Assembly: GCA_951230915.1 (NCBI GenBank)
Contig: OX579639.1
Span: 4,774,001-4,838,000, forward strand
Source: Antitrichia curtipendula
Lineage: Eukaryota; Streptophyta; Bryopsida; Hypnales; Leucodontaceae
DNA length: 64,000 nucleotides
Reading direction: 5' to 3'
The notes under the pieces are model-generated. The model made no database searches, was not told the origin of the DNA, and saw only the letters and a program-made list of their open reading frames with translations. This document shows, one piece after another, positions 13,909 through 59,567 of this stretch. The translations under genes were made by a program, and so were the position numbers. Within the stretch, counting starts at the first letter, position 1. Each line of letters begins with the position of its first letter.

Positions 13909-16900
13909 TCATCCACCACCAGAATGTCCATGCTCCAAAGACAATGTTGAGGTGTTCACAGGAGACGTTTGCGTACGGGCGTCCTCGGAATTGCTGCACG
14001 TAGGCCTCTGCTGCATCGGGACTGTGTTCAAAATTTCGAGTTGTTCCTGACTCATCTGTAGAATCTCATTAGGTGACAGAATCTTGATGGATCGCACACA
14101 ACCCACGAACTCCCTGCAAACCAACCAACAGCAGCATGTGTGACAAATTAGTTAGAACCTTGGATTCAAGGACAGTCAGGTTCAAAAACTGAAATTTGAT
14201 TTCCATCTGGGCTCAGAATCAAATTGCCGACGAGAACAGACGGTTTCTTGCTAAATCACGAACGCTGAGTCCTCATCCATCCCAGTCAGCTCGGAGAATT
14301 TTTCTATCACCATACACAGCACGTAAGAATTGAATTAGGCTCTGGTCACTTACTCCCAAGGATCGTCCCCAACGAGAAGGGTGTCGTTTTCATTATCTAC
14401 GAACACAAGCTGCCAGCCAGACCTTTGCGGATCATCCAATAAGCCCTCGAGGTTAAATAACCGAGCCAGCTCTGATCGAAGCTCGGTATAATTTTGAAAC
14501 TTCTGTACGTCAATTGACCGACCTACGCTTCCAAGCTTATGAACCTGGATTGCAAGAAATTGCCTTAGTAAGTACGTCTCACTTACATACAGTAACAAAA
14601 TTGGCTGCAACAAAAACAGCTCCAATACTGAAAGCAGCAGAAATCCATTCTTCAAGAACACAATTTCACTGCTATCAGGCATTCAACGACTATCAGCCCT
14701 TCGCAAAACTGCAACTATTTGCATCATGTAGTGAACCCAGGTGTTCAGTCTTACCTTGGTAAAAGTGCGCGGAGGAGCTGGAGACAGTGCTGGCCATGAT
14801 GTGCTCCTTTGAAACATCCCATTTTCATCGAGACCGATACCATTAATGGTAGGAATATCTGAGGTGACAGAAGGACAAAAAGAACCCTGGAGTAAATTGC
14901 TGCCAGTAAAACGACTTTGAGGGTCCTTATTCTTGGCCAATGCATGAGAATGAAGAGATGCAACAGAACTTGAGCCCACCAATGGCTGCTGCTGCTCGAT
15001 TGAGACCCCAAATAGGAGATGACGGTCGGACTGTACTGAATCCTGTTCCTCGCCATTCTCCCGGTAAATGAAGGAAGAGGCTGGTGCTGGCAGACCTGTC
15101 AAGCCAGATTGGCCATTTCCCTCGCTTTGTTGAGTGAAGGGAAAACACCCAGAAACTCTCGAGTTTGGAGATGTATCCACCTGGGTCATACGAGTGGACA
15201 CATCGTGCTGATGCAGATCTCGGTTGTTTGCAAACCAAGATGAAGAAACCTGTTGCGTACAGGGTCAGCAGTTTCACAAGTACTCATTAGAGGATAATAT
15301 TTCGAAGTAAAAAAATCCCTGATCCTGAATGACAACGTTCCCCAAAGTATGCCTGGTGACAAGGAGCTGTCAAAATCATTCCTTTGCGTTACAGCCAACA
15401 TTACTTCACACCTGAGGATTTCGCATAGCTATCCTCTATTGCCAACGTAACTTCATGCACTAAATATTATGAGCTTGCAAGTGAAATTACGAAGAAAATT
15501 TGTAAGAGATTCTTTACATCCACTCACTGCAGAGTCTGATCCAAAGAACATACCCCCAAACATATGATGGCATGTCGAAGTTATTAACAGTGCTGTAACT
15601 AGGAATACCCTTTTGGTGAAACCCGACAACCTTGAATTGCGAAGAATTACCTGCGGCTCACGTACAACACTGCCTCCATGTATTAGGGACACAGATTGAC
15701 TTTGTTGTGCATTGTGGGTTGGGCGCATCATGTGGGCAAGTTGACCACTTTCACACCCAAGATGGGTTCGGCCCAACATGGAGTGAAGAGGGAACGACCC
15801 TGAGGCAGAAGGCGATGAAGCCATGTGAATATCTCCTTCACTGTACCCCGAGCATTGTGCCATGTTTACCCCGGCAACCTCGAGCGGAGACTGAGGGCGA
15901 CTTGATGAAAGTTGGAGCATTGGACCAGAAACGTTGGATAAATGTTGCCCACCATGCTGGCTGGTTTGTGGTGACTGAGAACGGAACTGCATCTGCGAAG
16001 ATGATACGGAAGGTTGAGCATGCGCCATGGAGTGTTTCGAAGTATCTGCACTTCGGAACTCTTGAAGTGCTGCAGCTGCAAGTGCTCGGTAGTACTCATT
16101 TTGCTGCACTGGTAAACCAGGTTGCTGAAGCTGTGTCTGGTTGCGCATCCACGAGTCCATACCAAGATTTCGAAAATTCAGTGCCCCTAGTGCATCACTC
16201 CCATCCTCCCTTGACCAAAAGGATGACTTCTTCAACATCAAGTCCATCTCCTCATCTCCTGCAATCGATGCAATCCTATGCATCAAAATCCTATAACGAA
16301 ACCAGAACCGCCACAAAGACCTAACCATTCAAGACTCCGATTGACGGTCATTTCATAAAGCCCGGGACCAAAGCTTTACCTCTTCCTCCTCTCGGACGTT
16401 TGGATCGGAAAGCCAGAGGTGGAGGGCACAGCAGAAATGGGGCTGTCAAAGGTTCGATCTCCCACAGTGATACTCGCCTTTGCCTCTCACCTGCAGTCGA
16501 CTCGTCCCAACCAACCTGCACAGTGTCATACCGTCAATTTACATCTTTCTGGAACCGTTGCAAGAATATGCAGTCCAACAGTGAGATCCGAACAACATTG
16601 CAGTATAAAGTCATAAAAAAACGGGTAAAACATCATGGCTCAACATTTATAAAATCCACAAGGGTGACAACCTAGTACATCTAACCAAATAGTGCTGATA
16701 AATTTACTGTAATTTGGAACACAGAAAGTACCTTCAAATTGCGCCAGTGCGAATTAGGCCAACGAACTGGATCTAAATCGTCCATGCCTGTAATTGTGCC
16801 CATATATCTGAAGTGCAGACCGTTGTCAGCAAACGAAATCATAACATCTCATCCACGTTGAGCTTTTAAGGACTGAGCTTCCAGAATAACAAAATATTGC

Positions 16901-46413: not shown

Positions 46414-46423
46414 GGTTTGCACA
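46414..46423. repeat. Left target-site duplication of the MULE
   Basis: GGTTTGCACA, identical to 59,558-59,567. Duplications of 8-11 bp (usually 9) are characteristic of Mutator-type insertion. Confidence 0.8.
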
Positions 46424-46470
46424 CAAGGTTGCTATTCTGTGAGCCTGTGAGTGTGAGCGTATGAGCACTC
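46424..46470 (+). repeat. Left terminal inverted repeat of the MULE
   Basis: Starts CAAGGTTGCTATTCTGTGAG and continues with GTGAGC-type words, pairing with the reverse complement of 59,511-59,557 over about 43 bases. Confidence 0.8.
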
Positions 46471-46618
46471 AGTTTTTTGGGATGAAAGTTGATGAGGTAC
46501 CTATTACCGTGGATTTTACTATGATGTTTATATTGCCACATTTTAGGATCCTAAAACATTAATGATCCTTTTCCTAACCTTTTTAAAAAGTAAATCAACT
46601 GTTTTTCATAAAAATTAT

Positions 46619-46640
46619 TTAGGGTTTAGGGTTTAGGATA
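46619..46640. repeat. Three TTTAGGG units (interstitial telomere-like)
   Basis: TTTAGGGTTTAGGGTTTAGG, three plant-telomere-type units inside the left arm of the MULE. Too short to signify a telomere. Confidence 0.7.
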
Positions 46641-47433
46641 CTATGTAATTGTGATTATAAAACTAATATAACCTGAAAATCACCATTGAAGTGAAGTGGT
46701 TTAGGATATTTACTATTGTTTAGGACAATGCCTTCCTAATTCAACATGAACTACTAAAATATAGTTCACAAAATGTAGTTTAGGGTTCAATTCAAAATTT
46801 GGTATGATTATGAAATTTTTGAACTTCTAAGCAATATGAAGTTGAACTTCAACCCATTTAGTAGGCATTTGAAGTTATGACTTACTTATAATTGAATTAC
46901 AGAAATTAACAAGTAATAAACAATATTAAACCCAACAAACACATGATCAATAAGAAAAACGAGTCACATAGAATCAGAGTGGCCACTACTATCAGTGGAC
47001 AAAGTATCTACCTCTGATTCTAGGGCTGTGACATCTACAAACTGTAGAACCCTAGGATCTATAGTTGTAGACTTTTTCCGGCTTGGAAAATTCCTTTGAG
47101 ATGCAAATGTCAAAGCTAAAGCTTCGACATACTCAGGCAATGCAAAGGACTTCTCCGGGCTTGGAAGAAAACTAGATAGCGTAAAAAATGGACGAAGACC
47201 TCCTCCATTAGAAGTCATGCTGCAAAATGGAAACAAATTATTAGATATGTTTTGAATATCACATTCATAACTAAACAAACATGCAACATAGATTCAAAAG
47301 GAGTAAATAAATGAATTAGGAGAGCCTTCACATACAAATAGGAAAACAGTGCAAGCTATGGATAGACTTACTTACTGAAATGGGATTTCTTCACAATGTG
47401 GGGAACAATAACCTCCACTGCATCTTCATCATC

Positions 47434-47587
47434 CATTACAAAAAATTTCAGCCCTGGAAAAGGCTGCTAACAACTCATTTTCGGCACCCCTGTGGTGCAA
47501 TTACAGAAAAAATAAAAAATTATTTTTTTATTTTTTTAATATTATTTTATAAAAAATAATAAAAAATAATAATAAAAAAATAATAAA

Positions 47588-47618
<31 letters not shown>

Positions 47619-47807
47619 AAATTTTAAAAAATTAAAAAAAAATTTAAAAAAATATTAAAAAAATAAAAAAATCTAACAGAACGCTGACGTGGTCGAAATT
47701 CGACCACGTCAGCGATTTCAGTTCAGAAAGGGATTTCTCTCGACTTGCACCAGGGGGGAGGGTTGCATAACTCACGGCCTTTTCCAGGGCTGATATTTTT
47801 TGTAATG
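47434..47807. mobile_element. MITE inserted in the methyltransferase 3' coding region
   Basis: Terminal inverted repeats beginning CATTACAAAAAATTTCAGCC and extending over about 35 bp, with further inner pairing around TTGCACCA and a palindrome GACGTGGTCGAAATTCGACC near 47,688-47,707. The centre (47,515-47,680) is A/T low complexity. Outside the repeats the coding frame reads VDS on one side and DDEDAVEV on the other, in phase, so the MITE splits an exon. Read-through gives about a dozen foreign codons and a stop. No clean target duplication was read. Confidence 0.7.
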
Positions 47808-50800
47808 AGAATCCACTGTGATTGCTGCGGTAGAAGAAGGAACATCTGCAACTGTGCGTATCATTGGAGCCAAAATAGCATCGAAGATTGCCTTGTCCTC
47901 TTCAAGTGCAACTACATGCCTGCTCAAGATCCTACAAGCGTGGATGGAAGCCCCTACCACCAAGAAGACAACAAAGTTAAGTACTAAAGCATTCAAGAAA
48001 ACATAAAAGGAATATGAAAAGTCACAAATACCAAACATAACTTATGAAGGCATCAAAAATTACCCGTTGCAGCAGTGCAGTCAACAACAATATCATTGGG
48101 ATATGTTGATGCTTCTATCAACCTCTGCAAGAACCGGGGATCCTTTTCTCGTGCCCCTCTCCAGGGCTTGAAGTTGCTGTCCATGGTCAAAGTCTCCTTT
48201 GTGAAATTCTGCAGAACATCATCTACAGCAACATGTACCCCTAATTCCTTCAGCTTTGGACATGGTTGGAATTGGAATTTGGAAGGTCCAACCCCAACCA
48301 AATTCCTCACCAATAGCATAACTCAAACGAATTGGGTCTGCAAGAAAGAAGATGTATAAAAACATTTGGTTAAAAACAAATGTGTGGATAAATACTACCA
48401 ACTCACTTGAAAAACCCAAGAAATCAGAAATTACTAATGGAATATAACTGAAAAGAAGAAACAACATTCAAACAATTCAAACAAAAGAAATTGGAAACTA
48501 ACTACTGAAGAATGAAAGCATTTGTCTCATAATAAAAAATTTGATAAGGAAATGAACGGGAAAATGAACATACCGTTCATCCTGTAGAAACAAGTGATGC
48601 GAGATGTAACCAATTCGTTCCCTACCAATCCTTCATCTTTGTAAATGAGTAGGTAGCAACGTAGTTCAAAATGGTTGCCTTTGCAATAGCGCATCGTGGA
48701 TGAATAATTACAATAGCTCCATCATCATGCAGATGCCCATCCGCAAACTCAAATACCGCCTCCAACCATGCAAGTTGAGCCATGTTCCACTTGGGAATAC
48801 TAGTAGCTGGCATGGACAAAGAAGGAACAAGTAGTCCCTCAGGCATATCCGCGATAACTAGGTCAACACGAGGTTTATCACTTCGTTTATCTTTGAAGTT
48901 ATGTTGCTTGACTCCTTTGTGCTGCAACAACATTGTCTCCATCAGTACAAAGAAAAATGACAATCACAAAATATACCTTAGGGAAATCATGAATGACAGT
49001 GAAGCTACTAATCTGATCAATGAAACAGACAAGATCGTCGTAGACCTTGGGGAGAGGATCCGCCAGTACATCTGCAAGAGAATAGTTCAAAATCAACTCA
49101 GAAATAGTAATCTCTGAGTCCTTCAAATAATCCACAGCTGCAGGTCCATGGTGGATTTCATTGCTGCTAAGTGAAGCGTACTCAGCGTCACTCTTGGTGC
49201 CACGGAAAAAAGAACGCTGGTGCTGCGAGCCCTCATCGATGGTTGATGAAGGGGGTTCTAGCTCCCTCTTCTTCTTTCCCTTCATCTTTACAACTGCAAC
49301 GGCACTCTTCGTCTCAAGCAATTTCTGTGTTTTCTTGAAAATCCTCTCTTTGGCTTTGTCCACCGCCTTAGAGTTCTTTTGAGCAATTTTCTTGTCCGCC
49401 TCATCTCTCTGCTTGATAGCTCTGGTTTTGGCATCCTCATCAAGTCTAACAAATTCGTTAATCTCCTCAACAATCTGGTGGGAGTTAATTGGTTTCTTGA
49501 GGTGCTCTTCAGGCAACGGTGTGAACTCTGGTGGACAGTCCAAGTACCACGCTCCCGACTTCAAGTGCAAACTAGTCCACCACTTCAACTGCGACGGAGA
49601 AAACATGCAGTGCTCAGAAGAGACATCTAACCATGTTTTCAGAAACGGAGGAAGATCACGTTTCAGGATCGCATCCTTTGGCAAAAGCTCATACTTGAAA
49701 TACTTGAAACACTAGAGAATACCCGTTAAAAACTTAAACAACGTTTCAGAAACAAATACAAATATGTATCAATGACAACATCCACAAGAATACATACTGG
49801 TATATGACACGTTTCACCACTAGATCGGGGCCCTTATGCTTTCTAAAGTCATTGGACTTCCTGAAGACGTCATGTCCTCTGAATTGGGTAATGAATGCAT
49901 GGTCCCAAACTCAAATTCGCCATCCCTCCAGATACTCCGCAAAATTCTCTGGCTCCATGGGACAATCCATGGCCAAATTCAGCTGGTCCTTCTTAAGAAT
50001 GTTATCAAACATTTCCGATCCAACTTCTTCAATCTGTACATTAAAATTACGGAATTAGCTGCATGCATTTGATTACATTTTGAACTAAGAGAACTCAAAT
50101 TCTTGTAAGGTAGAGTTGAACAAAAATTTATGAAGATCCAAAATGTAACTGCAACTAAATCACTTACCCCTATATACCAACAAGCTTTTGCCAAAAAGGA
50201 CTTCAACTCGTTCTCTCCAACTGGCTTCACTAGATATCTTCTCGCTTCTCTTGTCTGAACAAAATAATTCTACCATCGGAGCTACTTCACCTTATGAAAG
50301 CTACTAATGTTGCACGTTGCAATCAACTGCAACTTCTCTAGAGTCATCTCCGGAGTGACGTTTGAGCTCCAATGGCGCTCAATCTAAAACAAAAGTGAAC
50401 TTCAGTTAGAGAGAATAAGGGATACCAAGGATTAACCAGTGAATATACGAATGTTAATACATACCTCTAGAAGCCAATCAATCCCAAGACTTGGGTTGGT
50501 GATGGTGGTTAACTTGCCCAACTTCTGTATCAATCTCGATGTCTTCTCTTTAGTTCCCAATTTCATTGCAGCAAGTACACCCTCCTCTGACTGCTCCTCC
50601 TCCAAAGTCTCTTCTTTGTATAACCAAACTGCAAGATCGGAAGCGGCAGCAATCTCGTACTGCGGAAGCACAGGATCATTAGTGAACATGGTAAACAAAT
50701 CACTAAAAAATAAAAAAGCAAGAAGCAAATAAACCAGAAATATCAGATAGTATAATTATCCAGAATATAAATGAAGTGAAAACATCAAGCGACATCGTGT

Positions 50801-51834
50801 ACCAACTCTTCCGGAGATTTTGATGGCACTGCAACATCTCACTTTCACTCAAGTGTTCGGAAAACTTCTCAAGTGGTAACATCCCATACTTACGGACATG
50901 ATACAACGTGTATATCAAACTTGTTTTTATGAAGGAATTTTCTGTATGCCTGCAAAGCATAATGGAGTTGATAAGATATTTCTATAGTGATGTAGAGAAC
51001 AAAAAAAACAAAACACAAGGAGATGATCTACTTACTTGTTAATGTCATGCATGGCATGCATGACATCTCCGATTCGGCCCTTTGTCTCAAGAATGATTGA
51101 ATCCACCGAAATATGCCAATCCCTATCACGCTCATGGTGTTTCTTGATGTATGAAATCTACACAAGGAGTCTGTGATTTCCATCACAGACAAAAAATTTG
51201 GACCTCCCAAGATCCTGCAACCCTGGAGTTTCATTCAGAGTGGAGTTGAAGATGTCATTTTCTTCATTCCACACGGGTCCCCAAGCCTCCTTGTCTGCAT
51301 CAAAAACCATCTCCGTCTCCCCTTGCTCGTTAGTTAGCAAAACATAAAAAACACATGAGCCATCCCTGTACTCGTGAACAAACTCTTACTCCAATTTAAT
51401 GAGGTCACATTGAAGCGCTAGCCGAACCATTGGCATCTGAGTAAGACGGCACAAAGGAATCCTGAGACGAGAAATAGAATGTGGTTTCAATTGCAAGTTG
51501 GTAATTGATGCATTCGAATTGACTTTCTGAGCCTTCCTCAATGCGTCCTCAGATTTGAATTCATCTTCAAACTCCTCCTTGTGCTCAGTGACATTGACCA
51601 TGTCGCCTTCTTCTCCGACATTGACTTGTACCTCAGTAACGTGAGTCTGTAAATGGATAACATCGTCCGCCATCTGCATTGGCAAAGGCTCAACTAAGTC
51701 AAACTTCTGAAAGCTCTACTACCCCGACCTTAACGTGCACATGCCACCAATCGCCAACAATAGTGGCAGAGAACATAGCAAAAAAGCCCCAGGTGAGAGA
51801 ATAACAAAAACATGGAGGCTTACCGGCATGACCA

Positions 51835-53215
51835 GACCTCACGGTAGCCCCATCGGCATTGAGGCAGTACCCAGAGGACACCAAAATTGATCCTAAATCC
51901 CCCCAAAAGAGACAAGGTTCGGGGCTTACCTACATCAGTCGACCTCGCAGGGCTCCCATTGGCGCCGAGGGGTGTCTCGGGGGACCCCAACTGATGCATA
52001 TCCACCAAACAAATGCAGCGTGTGTACTGTGGGCGAGTCCCCAAACTAGAAAAAAAAAAGGGTTCGGGCTGACCTGCATCAATCAACCTCGCAGGGCTCC
52101 CATCGGCGCCAAAGGCTGTCTCGGGGGACCCCAAATGATCGCATATCCACCCAAAAAATGCAGCGCGTATATTGTGGGTGAGTCCCCAAACTGGAAAAAA
52201 AAAAGGGTTCGGGGCTAACCTGCATCAGTCGACCTCGCGGGGCTCCTATCAGCGCCGAGGGTTGTCTCGAGGGACCCCAACTGATCGCATATCCACCAAA
52301 GTGACCAAACAAATGCAACGCTTGTACTGTAGGCGAGTCCCCAAACTGGAAAAAGATAAGAAAGGGTTTGGGGCTGACTTGCATCAGTCCACCTCGCAGG
52401 GCTTCCATTGGTGCCAAGGGCTATCTTGAGGGACCCCAACTAATCGCATATCCACCAAAAAATGCAGCGCGTGTATTGTGGGCGAGTCCCCAAACTGGAA
52501 AAAAAAGAAAGGTTTGGGCTGATCTACATCAGTTGACCTTGCGGGGCTCCCATCGGCGCCGAGGGTTGTCTCGGGGGACCCCAACTAATTGCATATCTAC
52601 CAAAGTGACCAAACAAATGCAGTGCGTGTATTGTGGGCAAGTCCCCAAACTGGAAGAATAAAAGAAAGGATTTGGGGCTGACTTGCATCAGTCCACCTCG
52701 TAGGGCTTCCATCGGTGCCGAGGGCTATCTCGAGGGACCCCAACTGATTGCATATCCACCAAAAAATGCAGCGCGTGTACTGTGGGCGAGTCCCTAAACT
52801 GGAAAAAAAAGGGTTCGGGCTGACCTGCATCAATCGACCTCGTGAGGCTCCCATCCGCGCCGAGGGCTGTCTCAGGGGACCCCAACTGATCGCATTTCCT
52901 CCAAAAAAATGCAGCGCGTGTACTGTAGGCAAGTCCCCAAATTAGAAAAAAAAAAAAAAAAGGGTTCAGGCTGACCTGCATCAATCGACCTCGCGGGGCT
53001 TCCATCGGCGCCGAGGGCTGTCTTGGGGGACCCCAACTGATCGCATATCCACCAAAAAAATGCAACGCGTGTTCTGTAGGCAAGTCCCCAAACTGGAAAA
53101 AATAAAAATAAAGGGTGGAGGGCTTATCTGCTTGTGCTGACCTTGCGTGGCCTCCTTCGGCGCCAAGGCTTACTCGAGGGACCCTGACTGATCGCATAAC
53201 TAAGAAAAATGCTAG
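51835..53215. repeat. Minisatellite of ~145-160-bp units in intron 1 of the methyltransferase gene
   Basis: About nine units marked by GCATATCCACC at roughly 51,996, 52,141, 52,287, 52,447, 52,601, 52,750, 52,902 (variant), 53,043 and 53,196 (variant). Each carries GCAGCGCGTGTA, GAGTCCCCAAACTGG, an A-run, GACCTGCATCAGTCGACC and CCCATCGGCGCCGAGGG. Some units have an extra GTGACCAAACAAATG. Strongly GC-rich compared with the rest. Open frames of up to 202 codons on the minus strand are repeat by-products. Related words occur at 57,375 and 57,530. Confidence 0.85.
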
Positions 53216-53436
53216 GGTTTCAATTGATAGACGCTCGGAGCGCAACTCAAGATTCGATCCATTGACATATCTGGATAATGATTTTGGAGTTCTCATACCT
53301 CTGACTCCGTGGCAGTGCGAGAAGACGTGATTTCAATTTCCACTTGTTTTCCTGGGCCGGCATTGCTGTTATTGTTGTGGTTGTCTTCTTGTGTCCCTTC
53401 CATCATTGAGCGTTTAGTTGCAGGTCGTCTTCCCAT

Positions 53437-55009
53437 TCCCTTAGTCAACTTCACAAAAAAATCGCAACTTTGATGAACAAGACTAAGATGTATGGTTTTA
53501 GACACGTAGAATCTTCTAAAGCCCTTTGAGATTTTGGAGTATTAGTTTTCGCACTATGTAGTTCAATTTCTACTCGGGCGTACCAACTGTGTGAAGGGAT
53601 CAAGAATTGCGTGTCTGGTGGTGTCTGTGCGACGAAGGCTATAATTAAGGAGGTCTGTCCGGTCGTTACGGCGCACAAGTTGTCCTAGGGTTTGGGATGA
53701 GATATGGAATTGGTTCCCAACATTGGAAGCCCATTCAATATGCATTAAGTGTCCAACGTCTACAATTGAGTAGATCTAATATAATTATAAGGGCTACTTA
53801 TGTTTCAACTTAGCATAGATGTGCCACTTGGTCATCGCATTAGAAATTGTAAAATCCTAGAGAATAATGGACGATTCAGTAAATGACCAATGAACTAAAT
53901 AACGTAATGGACTTATCGAACTAAGCGATGGTGAATCCAAATTACAATGTTTTAATGGCTCTTTTGCGATGTTGGTTACCATTTGCTCACTCTCGTATGC
54001 AAGGAAATGGAAGTCTTCATGTCCGTGAATTAGATGGCTTGATGATCCCCTGCTAAGAAGTGACTCGCATAATATAGTAGTATTGGTATTTCTAATCCGA
54101 GACCTTTGCAATTGCTTCCTTGATGAGTACAAGAGTTTACCTCTTTTTTTTCTCTTCCTACACTTAGGGCGAGAGTCACAATTGGCTATTCCATCTAGCG
54201 TATGCATAAGACTAAATGTACATATTTTGAAACCAGACTATACACAAATATGTGTACACTTCAGGAGACTCCGAGCATGAGAGAAGAAAAATAGTCACTC
54301 AATATTTTTAACGTTGTCTAACCTTGTGCTGATATACTGATATTTATATTGTAGGGACTATAGATGTGCTTCTCTATGGATGACCTCTTGCAAACCCTTA
54401 TTTGAGGTGTCCTTCATAAAATCCTGAAACTGTGGGCAAAGTACTGTTTAATACTCAAATTTGTTTTGGATAGTACTTTATGATTGTCTAATCCAATCTA
54501 CAAAATAATGATCTTAGAAGCACAGTAAAGGATATTATCTCCTTACATTAGGACCGTAAAAGCTTAATACTGTTGGGCCCTCAATTTTTGAAATTAGTAT
54601 GCAAGGTGGGTGGTCATAATATACCAAATCGTCGGTTATTTACTGATAATAAGAAGTTGGTGGTTACAATGGATGCTTATAGATTTTCCATAATGTCATA
54701 GTGCCTCCATGCATCCAAGGGGCCCATATTTTATGGCTTTTTACATAACTGTTATTCATGAATTAGGTGAGCTTCACTACTGATTAGCGTTGGTAGTGGC
54801 AAGATATTGTAAATCTATAGATTTTGTCATTAATGCGTAATTCATCGATAATGATGACGCTACAGTACAATGACTTTGAATTTCAAATTCATGTTAGTCT
54901 CATGTGTATATTGTGATTTTGAATGCTCACACAAAGTTTAAACAATGTGTGCTTTTTTCATGTTTTCTTTTTTCTTGTCTTACTTTCTGTATTGATTTGT
55001 TTAACTTCT
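53437..55009. promoter_or_regulatory. Divergent intergenic region of the MULE (putative bidirectional promoter)
   Basis: Lies between the minus-strand methyltransferase start (53,436) and the first likely plus-strand Met (55,010). No gene is convincing here: the minus ORF at 53,857-54,207 has a basic patch but no family. If the element's genes are transcribed, their promoters should be here. Inferred from arrangement only. Confidence 0.4.
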
Positions 55010-58000
55010 ATGGCCTCCATTCGTGCGGATGATCATGAGACTCCACTGGTAATTCGTCTAGGAGAAGACGGGTTTATTGTACTATCATCGCATTTTCTTC
55101 ATATTCGGTTCGATTTTATACAATCTAGTGTCTATGTTGAAGAAGAGGTAATGACTAAGTCTGGTTTTTTGAAAGAGACCGTCCACATTCCGTATGTAGC
55201 AGTTGACCTCGCTCATGTCTGGCACCTTCGTTCTGGGCGTTATCAAGCTTATGGCTTACCATGTAGTGTCATGCTACCTTCTACTGAGATTTTGGCTCGG
55301 CAGTCAGAACATTCAACAGTGAACATGCCTCTTACCATCGTGATAGTAGAAATTCTACAAAACGCAAGCATGTGACGAATGCGACTACATCTGTTCAATT
55401 TGTCCGTATAAAGCAAGAGCGTGCTGATTTTGTCATAGATCTGTCTAGTGAGTCCAAGGGAGAATCTCCCAGTCAACCTATTTGTCAAGCAACGCATCCA
55501 AGTAGAGTCTCCAATGATGGCGGAAAGACAACATCTGATGTATTCTGCACGCCTTCCAATAGTTCAGCTCTGTCAAGTCACTCTCGACCATCAACTTACC
55601 CAAGTGGTCCATTGTCAATTAGTATCATTGGGTGCTTAACAAGCTAGCAACGCTTTATAAATCTAAAAATGAAATTGTTGCTTTAAACTACGACTCCTTC
55701 AATCACCAGAAGATGCAATATCTTCCTGTTGAGTTCGATGGTGATGTAGTCTTTGAGTTGCCTTGTCTTTGGGGTTCATCTTCATCATCGGCTGCTGGGA
55801 GCCTACAGGGCATGGATAAGAAATATGATGGACATGCATGGTGTCGGACCATAACGACGAATATTAGCAACGGAGATGGCCTCAAGTTCAAGAAGTCTTC
55901 ATGTGCAAGACATCTGATTTGTAACAACTTGGAATGCGACTACTTCAAGAGATCTTCAAAGCGGAATGAAACTAAGTGGTGTGGTTATACTCTTGTTCCT
56001 TTTCATATTGGCAGAAACCCTCCCAAAGATTTATTTCTTCTGTGCAAGATATACAAATTTCCTCCTCATTGTGTCAATACATGTGATGCTAGAATATATT
56101 ACGTTTTTGGCGATACAATGCAGATGACTAGAGCATGCCTTCACTTTGGGTTTCATATGCATCTTGTAGCTTCCGGAACTTGTAGAGAGTCATTAGACAC
56201 TATTTCCGGCCTCATTGCAGGCAAGGTTACTAAAACACCCGCTGCCACTAACTTTGCAATTGCTCTAGCAGCTAGTAAGCAATTTCTAGACAACCACCTC
56301 ATCCATAGTGGGGAAGGGAAAAAAGAAATGTTGCAGGGGAACTCGCTAGAGGAAGTCATGGACAAGTTTCAGATTCTTAATTCTCCAAACATTCGAAACG
56401 TTATTTCTTCTTTTTGTACTAGTGGGAATAGCGGGGACGCGGGGTTATAGATAGCATCATGAATATGAAACGAAATTTGAGGTTTGAGTATATTCATGAG
56501 TGTCTTTCTTGGACAAGGAAAGGAAAAAGTCTATTTGTTTAAGATGTTGGTAGAAGGTCCAGGCAGTGGAGTGGACTTGGTCACTCGTATGCAACCTGGA
56601 GGAGATTTAGAGAATGCATGGCTTATATTTGACCATGTCAAATGCGTCAAGGATTGGACAACCATGTCTTGCCATGTGTATGATACTGGATGCAGAAAAG
56701 TCATGACAATCGCAGTTTGTGACATGCAATCCGAGGACACGGAAGTACAATGCATCATGTGGAAGTTATTGAACGGGGTCATGAGGCGCAATGGTGTACA
56801 AAATCCAAACTTCAAAGGCTTCATGGCAGATAGTGCACAAGCAAATTGGAATGCTGTGCGTATTGTATGCGGATCAGGGGATTCCAAAGTAGAGATGAAA
56901 AACCGTGAACGAACATGTCTCTTGCATTGGAGTACTTCACTGCATCGCCATACGCAGAAGCTCATAAAATCGGACTTTCAACACCAACATATTCGTCTCT
57001 ATAAACAATACAAGGATTCTAAAAGTATGGATGAAGCTGAATGAGGTACTTGGTGATTCGATCATGGTGGCTATCATCTGGAGCAGCGTCTGAAGATGCT
57101 CTAAGGGAATTAGAGTTGTGGCTTGCATTTTGGCACTTTCAATATTGCCAATGGGACGGATTTATGCAAATGGTGATTCATTCCATGTCATTTCCTTTGT
57201 AGTCTATGTCATGCATTTCATTATTCTCATTTTCAATATTTTTTTTTAATTTTTTTAAACTTCTATTCTATTTCTCTATTTTTTTTCTTCTTGTAATTAT
57301 ATATATATTTCAATTATTTTCTTTTGGGCCCCGTCTAATTATACTATATATCGGTGTTTTTGATCACCTGAAGTAGTGGTTGACCTTCCCTCGGCGCCAA
57401 GGGGACTCTAAGCTAATTTTCATTTAGCTACTTGAAAATTACTAAATGACATTTATGGATTGTAATTTTCCGTGACAGTTTTGCATCTTATTCTTTGTTT
57501 TACTGGTTCCAGAATGTAAGCGTGGTAGTATTTGACCTTCCCTTCGGCACCGAGAGGACTCTACACTGCGTATGCAACAGTTCAGAAGTACTTCATTACT
57601 TCGTCAGTAGTAAATTTTCCGGATTGAATGTCTTAGTGACTATCTTGCATCTTGTTCTTTATCTTGCTTCTTCCAAGATTTAAGCATTGAGGAGATGGCT
57701 GACATGCCATCATGCAATCTATCCGAAACAATCCATAACAGGTGGTTGCAACAATCGGGTAATTGAGGTAATAATCTTTTTGCCGCCACTTCCAATGATT
57801 GCATTCGAGCCTTTATGCAGATGACAAATTATCGTGCTTTCCTTAAAGGCAATATATCAAGGTCAGGGCCATCCAAAGAGGAGTTAAAGTTAAGAGGTGC
57901 TAGACGCAGCGGAGACCCAAAGAAGATTGCCGAGGCTTTGAATGACCTTCCCGGAGCAGCTGATGTCGGAACACGCATTCCGCATTTGGAAGGCGAAGAG

Positions 58001-59082
58001 GTTTTTGGTAGCAGTATGCGCGAGCTTAACCTCCCAACTGGATCGGATGGTGACTCCCATCGTTCAGACAAGGTGAACTTCTCACTGCCACGTGTCCAAA
58101 CACAATCTATACATCTGCCCACAATGGCATCCAATGAAGACTTGGTGGCTGATATTGCTCACGTACCACATGTTACGACAGCAATGGAGAGTGATTGTGA
58201 TACTTTACATTGACACATTGCAAGAATTTCGCACAAGTCTACTTGCAAATGTCACGCCCAACAAAGGGGTTCCAGCATTTGTTGTGTAGCCAAAATTGCA
58301 AAGGGATCTAAAGGCACTCCAGCTCCGACGTATCGTAGTAGAAAAAAACAATATGGTGGAAATAAGGAGATCATCACCAACTTTTGGTTCTGCCCAGATG
58401 ATATTGAATGATGTGTACGAGGCTCTAAACGTGGTTGGGTAATTGATTGGCCTCAAGTACCAGATGTCTGGCCTATATTAACGGATACTAGTTTGACTCG
58501 CCAAGAGACACTGCTACTGCAAGAGGCTGGCTTTCAACTTCAACAGCGACCACTTATGTCACCTTGACGTTTGTTCACAATGTCCAATGTTTTCCATGCA
58601 ATCCCTTATGATCAACCTAGTCCTTTGCATGCGGACACATACCCAACAACTTGAAGAAGCAAGGCTATTTGACGTATTGCAAATGCTCCTACTACAGAGC
58701 ATCGCAATAAATGGAAGAGTGCTGGTAATGTCAAAGGATCCATCTTAGGAGTAACCATGCTCCCCTTTCCACGACTTGGAGCTATAATTTCTCTTCAATC
58801 CGGAACCAAGCCTACACAGAAGGTTTATCGTATTACACTTGGCATGCACTTGGAGTGTAATTGTCCCGATTTGGTAGACATGGCCGTCTCAGCAATTGGT
58901 GGACGGCAGCAATACGTTAAAATTGCAAACATTTGTACTACTTATTTTGTTACTTCTGCAAGATGAATCCTGAAAAAGATAAGTTCATATATTCTCCAAG
59001 CTTCAACTTCAACGAAGTGAAACTCCTTCTCAGTAGGGCTGGTATCATCAAGGTGGCAAATGAGAGTCTTCCAAATGTTTAG
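55010..59082 (+). pseudogene. Mutator-like (MULE) transposase with DDE region and SWIM zinc finger, inactivated
   Basis: Cuts and moves the element. The frame opens at 55,010 (MASIRADDHETPLVIRLGED), passes a basic STKRKH patch, then at 55,632-56,450 shows a zinc-finger-like ICNNLECDYFK followed by WCGY. The DDE region (56,484-57,046) has NAWLIFDHVKC and FMADSAQANW with a following CLLHW. Around 57,110-57,180 LELWLAFWHFQYCQWDG is transposase-like. Then 57,683-58,920 is a single frame (SETIHNRWLQQSGN onward) interrupted only by TGA at 57764, 58211, 58409, 58565, 58652 and 58670. The end is a SWIM finger: ECNCPD, then after a frameshift near 58,918, CKHLYYLFCY. Further frameshifts lie near 55,330, 55,630, 56,455 and 56,520. 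Whether the first 110 codons are part of the transposase or a separate small protein is unclear. The segment 57,200-57,680 looks like an intron. Confidence 0.8.
57200..57680 (+). other. Probable intron of the transposase gene
   Basis: T-rich sequence between coding blocks, containing two copies of a ~30-bp word, TGACCTTCCCT(T)CGGC(G/A)CC (57,375 and 57,532), that resembles the minisatellite in the partner gene. No clear splice sites were assigned. Confidence 0.35.
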
Positions 59083-59510
59083 AGAACAAAAAATGTCAAA
59101 GTGATAGACATATGAGATTGGAAGATTATAGATTGAAGTTAGTTTTATAGCTTTAAAAGCACCGATTTCTATTTGGATGAATACTGTAGTTTTCTGAAGT
59201 ATTCAATACAAACTGTCTTCAAATCCGACTTGCATTTTATGTCCTACAGTTGTTTGCCTTCAAATTATATACTTTTCACCCTTCAACCAATAGGTAAAAT
59301 TAGTGTCACCCTGCAAATAATAAATAATCATAGTAATATGTCCACGGTCATATGTCCACGATCATAGGTCCACGGTAAGAAGTTCTAAATTTTTAATATA
59401 AATAGAAAATAGTTTCAATATTTTTATGATATTGTTAACTTTTTGAAATATGACTGACTTTCCTAAGGTATTTTTTTAATTCACACCTCTATGCTCACAT
59501 ATTCCCCGCT

Positions 59511-59557
59511 CCCCACTCGTATGCTCATGCTCGCAAGCTCACAGTCTAGCACCATTG
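59511..59557 (-). repeat. Right terminal inverted repeat of the MULE
   Basis: The reverse complement starts CAATGGTGCTAGACTGTGAG, matching the left terminus. GAGC-type words recur. Confidence 0.8.
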
Positions 59558-59567
59558 GGTTTGCACA
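59558..59567. repeat. Right target-site duplication of the MULE
   Basis: GGTTTGCACA, an exact copy of 46,414-46,423. Confidence 0.8.

What the first reader, a model, noticed from the sequence alone, without database searches (positions are those of the whole stretch)
46424..59557. A plant MULE that carries its own ParB-like/N4-N6 DNA methyltransferase gene, divergent from the transposase
Seen: a 10-bp direct repeat (GGTTTGCACA) and about 43-bp imperfect inverted termini bracket a 13.1-kb unit with two divergent genes. Known: 8-11-bp duplications and SWIM-containing DDE transposases are MULE traits, and some MULEs carry extra genes that counter silencing (VANDAL/VANC) or a ULP1-like protease. 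Inferred: here the passenger is a prokaryote-style DNA methyltransferase fused to a ParB-like motif. An element that writes its own DNA methylation (4mC or 6mA) could mark, protect or time transposition, or counter host 5mC silencing. I know of no described system of this kind.
Basis: partly seen in the sequence, partly recalled or inferred. Interest (0 to 1): 0.92.

Follow-up and report, generated by a model that had tools for sequence, protein, structure and literature searches.

The report
Transposons carrying a ParB-methyltransferase-like gene
A very large family of jumping genes in a plant genome usually travels with a second gene, built from two bacterial-type parts that handle and mark DNA, and with mirror-image DNA sites of its own, which suggests that the transposon makes a protein to recognise and control its own DNA.

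Summary
Element 46424-59557 has an exact 10-bp target duplication, imperfect ~42-bp TIRs and two divergent genes. It belongs to a large family in its own 400-Mb plant genome. Ten of ten other copies fetched carry both genes in this layout; 40 of 40 scored left ends have the methyltransferase-like gene within 4 kb. Within 15 kb, 105 of 150 transposase loci have it divergently, 1 convergently, 1 same-strand. dN/dS is 0.12-0.20 between distant subfamilies. So it is an element gene, not a chance capture.

The N-terminal domain has the ParB/sulfiredoxin fold. The C-terminal domain is a beta-class amino-methyltransferase relative, but its motif IV is D[ML]PE[GD]; 0 of 20 read have [DNS]PP[YFW]. Writing of 4mC/6mA is therefore doubtful, and copies decay like 5mC-methylated DNA. 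This copy is dead.

New: the palindrome TCGGCGCCGA recurs in the elements. Its extended form CCTCGGCGCCGAGG has 262 genome places (backward control 0); 48 of the 50 listed lie at two fixed places in such elements, though none is exact in this copy. I propose self-recognition, working like VANDAL/VANC.

The parts
46414..46423 (.). left target-site duplication GGTTTGCACA
59558..59567 (.). right target-site duplication GGTTTGCACA
46424..46465 (+). left terminal inverted repeat (GTGAGC-rich)
   Evidence: present in the ten other copies
59516..59557 (-). right terminal inverted repeat
   Evidence: present in the ten other copies
51036..51673 (-). exon 1 of the ParB-MTase-like gene: ParB/sulfiredoxin-fold domain with CDGNHR; two stops in this copy
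50784..50949 (-). exon 2 of the ParB-MTase-like gene
50465..50659 (-). exon 3
50168..50383 (-). exon 4
49798..50033 (-). exon 5
48977..49703 (-). exon 6 (charged linker region); its 3' boundary differs in the E1-like subfamily
48574..48921 (-). exon 7: methyltransferase motif IV position, here ADMPEG
48064..48337 (-). exon 8: start of motif I (DCTAATG)
47808..47953 (-). exon 9, first part: rest of motif I and acidic loop (ALEEDK)
47434..47807 (.). secondary insertion with 31-bp inverted ends that splits exon 9 in this copy only among the 11 aligned
47373..47433 (-). exon 9, rest (approximate end)
46964..47219 (-). last exon of the ParB-MTase-like gene, to the stop codon
51905..53198 (.). intergenic tandem array (~150-bp unit) just upstream of the ParB-MTase-like gene; palindrome TCGGCGCCGA exact at 52553 and 53005, decayed in other units
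55010..57172 (+). transposase exon A (approximate; frame breaks in this copy); two conserved D, CxxH and a conserved E read by eye
57389..57402 (.). palindrome-type site in the transposase intron, CCTCGGCGCCAAGG, one mismatch from the 14-bp palindrome; a more decayed one about 150 bp on
57678..59082 (+). transposase exon B (approximate), with a CxC...CxH pattern like SWIM, read by eye
46499..46513 (.). left subterminal word ACCTATTACCGTGGA
59336..59376 (.). right subterminal 14-bp tandem repeats (TCCACGGTC type), a decayed counterpart of the left word

Best explanation
This is a cut-and-paste DNA transposon of the MULE-like kind with two standard genes. One is the transposase. The other, divergently transcribed, makes a protein with a ParB/sulfiredoxin-fold domain joined to a beta-class amino-methyltransferase-fold domain. 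I propose that this protein recognises the element's own DNA at the palindrome TCGGCGCCGA (extended form CCTCGGCGCCGAGG), which lies as a tandem array in the region between the two genes and again in the transposase intron. There it would act as an element-encoded chromatin or transcription controller that opens, marks or times related copies. The ParB-like part would give assembly on DNA, and the methyltransferase fold would serve mainly as a SAM/DNA-binding scaffold rather than a normal 4mC/6mA writer. Shown: two genes inside TIRs and TSDs, the divergent layout, purifying selection, ParB/Srx fold (of a model), methyltransferase homology, a conserved non-canonical motif IV, and an element-associated palindrome at two places. 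Inferred: that the protein binds the palindrome, and everything that follows from binding.
Against: No binding, expression or methylation data. The palindrome could serve the transposase or a host factor. This copy has no exact 14-mer and only two exact 10-mers; E5's intergenic region has no exact 10-mer, and in the near subfamilies the exact 14-mer sits mainly on the transposase side. Tandem arrays and the C1 cluster inflate site counts, and the repeat-unit comparison was anchored on the core, so only flanks are informative. Copies show 5mC-type decay, so any anti-silencing is not lasting. ParB kinship rests on one predicted model with no Foldseek row at E 0.001 or below; no sequence profile matches.
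Confidence: 0.45

Rival explanations
1. The protein is an active DNA amino-methyltransferase with an altered motif IV that writes 4mC or 6mA on the element, for instance on the palindrome array, and so protects or times it.
For: Methyltransferase homology and beta-class motif order; D, second P and Glu of motif IV are each kept in 19 of 20 exon-7 sequences, so the site is under constraint; the palindrome looks like a type II recognition site.
Against: 0 of 20 have [DNS]PP[YFW]; the aromatic position is Glu in 19 and Lys in one. SPPY to APPA abolished activity in rotifer N4CMT (PMC8885841, passages). Motif I is also changed (DCTAATG). No methylation data at hand.
Confidence: 0.2
2. The second gene is a transposition helper (a partner of the transposase, as MURB or VANB may be; recalled) and the palindromes are transposase or host-factor sites unrelated to it.
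For: Frequent co-occurrence with the transposase; palindrome sites also lie in the transposase intron; GC-rich palindromes of this kind resemble some host factor sites (recalled).
Against: ParB/Srx plus methyltransferase folds are not known helper folds (recalled); the subterminal words near the ends, the likelier transposase sites, are a different sequence.
Confidence: 0.25
3. Chance capture of a host or bacterial gene by one MULE, without function for the element.
For: MULEs often acquire gene pieces (PMC6446971 abstract start and passages; PMC13317346 passages).
Against: Present in 40 of 40 scored left ends and across subfamilies with dS 0.8-2.1 at dN/dS 0.12-0.20; a whole multi-exon gene is kept, not a fragment.
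Confidence: 0.02

Closest known systems
VANDAL elements with VANC (Arabidopsis non-TIR MULEs)
   Same: MULE-type element with an added gene; short motif stacked as fast-changing tandem repeats in non-coding parts of its own family (PMC5735166, passages).
   Different: Here the element has TIRs; the added protein is ParB/Srx plus methyltransferase-fold; the motif is a GC-rich palindrome; anti-silencing is untested. No VANC sequence was compared directly.
Kaonashi (KIU, Ulp1-bearing) MULEs
   Same: MULE with a recurrent extra gene (PMC13317346, passages).
   Different: Ulp1 protease domain, not ParB/methyltransferase.
DNMT-bearing retrotransposons of Symbiodinium and Klebsormidium, and DIRS elements with Dam-like domains
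   Same: Transposable elements that carry a DNA-methyltransferase-type domain (PMC5890265, passages).
   Different: Retrotransposons with C5 or Dam-like enzymes; de novo CG methylation shown for retrotransposon DNMTs. Here a DNA transposon with a beta-class fold and a non-canonical motif.
Eukaryotic N4C methyltransferases (rotifer N4CMT; Marchantia 4mC enzyme, name DN4MT recalled)
   Same: Bacterial-type amino-methyltransferase genes in eukaryotic genomes (PMC8885841, passages).
   Different: Those are host genes, with SPPY in N4CMT; this is an element gene with D[ML]PE.
Bacterial/phage DpnA, MboIIA, CcrM and other beta-class methyltransferases
   Same: Weak matches over the motif I region; same motif order.
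   Different: Catalytic motif and part of motif I changed; joined to a ParB/Srx-fold domain and spliced.

Membership tests
Mutator-like elements (MULE) | 8-11 bp target-site duplication | tested here: met
   exact 10 bp in the window and seven others, exact 9 bp in E3, 1 mismatch of 10 in E6, none in E7
Mutator-like elements (MULE) | terminal inverted repeats (or a non-TIR lineage) | tested here: met
   32 of 42 bases match in the window; ends kept in ten other copies
Mutator-like elements (MULE) | MULE/IS256-type DDE transposase | tested here: inconclusive
Mutator-like elements (MULE) | SWIM zinc finger | tested here: inconclusive
   CxC...CxH by eye; no Pfam SWIM match
N6_N4_Mtase (PF01555) DNA methyltransferases | profile match above the curated cut-off | tested here: not met
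   6 of 6 members match at best E 7e-6, but the two scores printed are 26.1 and 23 bits against 26.7; the other members' scores were not printed
N6_N4_Mtase (PF01555) DNA methyltransferases | catalytic motif [DNS]PP[YFW] | tested here: not met
   0 of 20 exon-7 sequences; D[ML]PE[GD] in 17, single-residue variants in E4, E6 and L069
N6_N4_Mtase (PF01555) DNA methyltransferases | beta-class order, motif IV before motif I | tested here: met
   exon 7 before exons 8-9; the placing of D[ML]PE on DpnA's DPPY comes from a stretch that is not significant by itself
N6_N4_Mtase (PF01555) DNA methyltransferases | methylates DNA | not testable with these tools
   needs protein or modified-base reads
ParB/sulfiredoxin superfamily | ParB/Srx fold | tested here: met
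ParB/sulfiredoxin superfamily | sequence-profile match | tested here: not met
   no ParB family in Pfam (A1, A4) or PHROGs (A3); single weak hits to DUF1015, DndB and DUF6551 (recalled as ParB-like) score no better than unrelated chance hits
ParB partition proteins | helix-turn-helix binding of a palindromic parS and CTP clamp | not tested
   an element palindrome exists, but binding and CTP use were not testable
VANC anti-silencing system | VANC protein homology | not tested
   no VANC sequence was compared; no such Pfam domain appeared
VANC anti-silencing system | family-specific motif stacked in non-coding tandem repeats | tested here: met
   that the protein binds it is untested
VANC anti-silencing system | loss of methylation on related copies | not testable with these tools
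   needs methylomes; copies show 5mC-type decay

The most novel reading that the evidence does not exclude
A eukaryotic DNA transposon runs a parS/ParB-like self-recognition system: a ParB-fold clamp joined to a methyltransferase fold loads on palindromic arrays between its own divergent genes and, by binding or by an unusual D-x-P-E chemistry, sets a non-5mC mark or chromatin state that counters host silencing for family members. This would be a kind of element-encoded epigenetic controller that I know of nowhere else.
Probability: 0.15. Interest if true: 0.93.

Novelty: new variant of a known kind. Interest (0 to 1): 0.8.

Why it matters
Plant transposons that carry their own anti-silencing factor are known essentially from VANDAL/VANC (recalled; PMC5735166, passages). 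Here is an unrelated protein architecture in what looks like a very large element family of its host (1347 transposase-exon candidates), with a candidate DNA target already in hand. That makes direct tests simple: does the protein bind the palindrome, and does expressing it change methylation of copies? The protein also offers a naturally conserved methyltransferase fold whose catalytic motif was rewritten, a case for asking what such folds do without ordinary catalysis. No such element appeared in the rows listed by eight literature searches (open-access library only, listings capped, no Repbase), so prior description is not excluded.

Tried and rejected
Chance capture: rejected. Host gene outside elements: no such case seen, but lists were capped (150 of 1142 exon-7 candidates scored, of which 43 had no listed transposase within 15 kb; transposase hits were 150 of 1347), so a host copy is not excluded. 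Whole-protein search of 5.8 billion proteins: 7997 candidates scored, 0 hits, probably because gene calling without introns splits the exons; the ParB exon alone then gave 335 at E up to 10, the 120 listed all at about 1e-66 or below. Viral contigs and prokaryote genomes: no relatives. PDB sequence search for the ParB exon: nothing, and with the 120-row profile only eL24 and a saposin at E 0.57 and 1.8. Rfam on the window: 0 at gathering threshold. Fold search of the transposase: only ISCth4 is meaningful and it is weak. My first pairing counts (73 of 90, 87 of 150), which held hand-picked extra hits and is biased, are replaced.

Mended on re-check: I had written the 14-bp palindrome as if it filled the arrays. 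In the 11 copies the arrays carry mainly the 10-bp core in the form CATCGGCGCCGAGG or like; the exact 14-mer is in 9 of 11 copies (not in the window copy or E4), 8 on the transposase side and 2 in the intergenic region.

Rows dropped: E6 from the ParB-exon dN/dS and alignments (5' part of exon 1 replaced); L063 from dN/dS (my pattern caught only 24 bases of its exon 7); alignments A1, A2, A3 used 5, 6 and 6 of the sequences I had. Ten of the 33 other left ends with a listed transposase were fetched in full.
Full report
The element. The window lies at C7:4774001-4838000 of an unnamed 400-Mb genome. At 46424-59557 a 13,134-bp unit sits between two exact copies of GGTTTGCACA, with ends that match at 32 of 42 bases. 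On the minus strand is a gene of at least ten exons, on the plus strand a gene of two main exons; the 5' ends face each other across 3.3 kb of non-coding DNA. This copy is dead: eight stops in the nine exons checked of the minus-strand gene, frame breaks in the other, and a 374-bp insertion with 31-bp inverted ends.

A family, and a recurrent pair. The first 477 bp of the element find 84 candidate places in the genome, of which 40 were scored. Ten other copies, chosen because they had such an end and a transposase exon in the right orientation, were fetched. Ten of ten hold both genes, divergent, between TIRs, with target duplications in nine (exact 10 bp in E1, E2, E4, E5, E8, E9, E10; exact 9 bp in E3; 1 mismatch of 10 in E6; none in E7). 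Of the 40 left ends (the window's own among them), 40 have a hit to the methyltransferase-like gene within 4 kb and 34 a listed transposase hit downstream; 14 of the 40 come from one cluster on C1 and are not independent. The exon with motif IV has 1142 candidates, 150 scored, down to 52% identity; the transposase exon has 1347, 150 scored. Comparing these two lists, 105 of 150 transposase loci have the partner divergently within 15 kb, 1 convergently, 1 on the same strand, and 44 have none listed (one locus falls in two classes); random placement gives 0.7 on average, at most 4. Both lists are capped, so 105 is a lower bound, but the 44 could include elements without the gene.

Selection. Over exons 7-9, dN/dS is 0.12-0.14 in most of the distant pairs (dS 1.2-2.1, saturated), 0.20 for L061 with L060 or L062 (dS 1.1), 0.14-0.20 at dS 0.8-0.95, and 0.25-0.27 between the two near subfamilies. 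The two youngest pairs give 0.74 (E7-E9, dS 0.03) and 0.70 (L060-L062, dS 0.02); a third young pair, L059-L064 at dS 0.07, gives 0.21. For the ParB exon the ratio of means is 0.19. The pattern fits a gene needed while copies move and freer to decay after, though the last pair shows that this is not uniform. E1 has no stop in the nine exons checked; in its subfamily one extra base near the end of exon 6 leaves that splice site unclear.

The catalytic motif. The exon-7 sequences read (window, ten copies, L059-L064, L068-L070: 20) all lack [DNS]PP[YFW]. Most read ADMPEG, others DMPED or DLPEG; exceptions are E4 (G for D), E6 (K for E) and L069 (L for P). Motif I reads DCTAATG in most, with the acidic ALEEDK kept in the six aligned. 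In rotifer N4CMT, SPPY changed to APPA loses 4mC activity (PMC8885841, passages). So ordinary amino-methylation is doubtful; constrained binding or altered chemistry is more likely.

Host methylation. In the gene region of five close copies (E1, E2, E7, E8, E9), 162 of 195 private changes are C>T or G>A: 38 in CG, 55 in CHG, 69 in CHH, against about 255, 315 and 1352 such sites per copy, so CG and CHG are about three times as mutable (ratios mine). In the older group (window, E3-E6) the share is lower, 327 of 588 (73 CG, 83 CHG, 171 CHH). I infer host 5mC at some time after insertion; no methylome was seen.

The palindrome. The array between the genes is a minisatellite. Two unit types, 107 bp and about 150 bp, share GCTCCCA before and G after the core TCGGCGCCGA; the comparison was anchored on the core, so only these flanks are informative. 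The exact 10-mer occurs in 11 of 11 copies, 0 to 12 times in the intergenic region (0 in E5, 2 in the window) and 0 to 2 times on the transposase side. It is absent from the 50 kb of the window outside the element; a form allowing transitions occurs there 6 times. The extended 14-mer CCTCGGCGCCGAGG is in none of the window's sites (best: one mismatch, at 57389 and twice in the array), and in the ten other copies sits on the transposase side in eight and in the intergenic region in two. In the whole genome it has 262 places, and its backward reading none. Of the 50 places listed, all on C1, 29 lie 4.2-8.5 kb upstream of a transposase DDE exon, where the intergenic region is, and 19 lie 0.3-1.0 kb downstream of one, where its intron is; two have no listed transposase within 12 kb; 1.7% of C1 is that near. 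This holds in distant subfamilies, such as C1:34.09 and C1:39.62 Mb. Eight of the 19 come from the C1 cluster, and arrays are tandem, so the independent number is smaller. The pattern recalls VANDAL elements, whose VANC protein binds a short motif stacked in non-coding tandem repeats (PMC5735166, passages).

Reading. The element carries a second, selected gene whose protein may recognise the element's own palindromes. Whether it demethylates, marks, shapes chromatin or helps transposition cannot be told from sequence. I hold sequence-specific, mainly non-enzymatic control as most likely (0.45, lowered from 0.5), then a transposition helper (0.25), then an active methyltransferase (0.2).

What it is not shown to be. 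The transposase has no Pfam match and only a weak fold match to ISCth4, so I write MULE-like. The host is taken for a plant from the CHG decay and an auxin-response-factor-like gene at 14.3-16.3 kb (the latter recognised from memory, sequence); the species is unknown. Papers: passages only were read of PMC8885841, PMC6446971, PMC5890265, PMC5735166, PMC13317346, PMC9477723 and PMC10952607; all others were seen as search listings.

Noticed in passing
G000:C1:41.44-42.13 Mb and C209: 14 left ends of the element on C1, mostly 40-60 kb apart and in both orientations, whose transposase exons mostly show one TGA and one TAG each: a segmental array (or assembly artefact) that multiplied a broken copy.
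   Followed up: partly
window 47434-47807: A 374-bp element with 31-bp inverted ends (97% complementary) inserted in exon 9 of this copy and absent from the other ten.
   Followed up: partly
own genome, one search hits such as C3:23623798 and C8:17533602: A more distant lineage of ParB-type exons, often with open 222-225-aa frames (150 scored of 1311 candidates); 110 of the 150 have no transposase within 40 kb in the list used, whose query came from another lineage. Its methyltransferase motif was not read.
   Followed up: no
window 46424-46470 and 59510-59557: The TIRs are built of repeated GTGAGC-like words whose number differs between copies, as if the ends themselves undergo slippage.
   Followed up: no
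window 46499-46513 and 59336-59376: The subterminal word TATTACCGTGGA is near the left end in 11 of 11 copies and also near the right end in 8 of 11 (not in the window, E6 and E7), a candidate transposase binding site.
   Followed up: partly
window 14350-16328, minus strand: Exons that look like an auxin response factor (end LVGDDPWE, recognised from memory), supporting a land-plant host.
   Followed up: no
Close relatives of the transposase exon and of the ParB exon are common in metagenome and ENA contigs, so both are probably widespread among plants; source organisms are not named there and pairing was not checked.
   Followed up: partly
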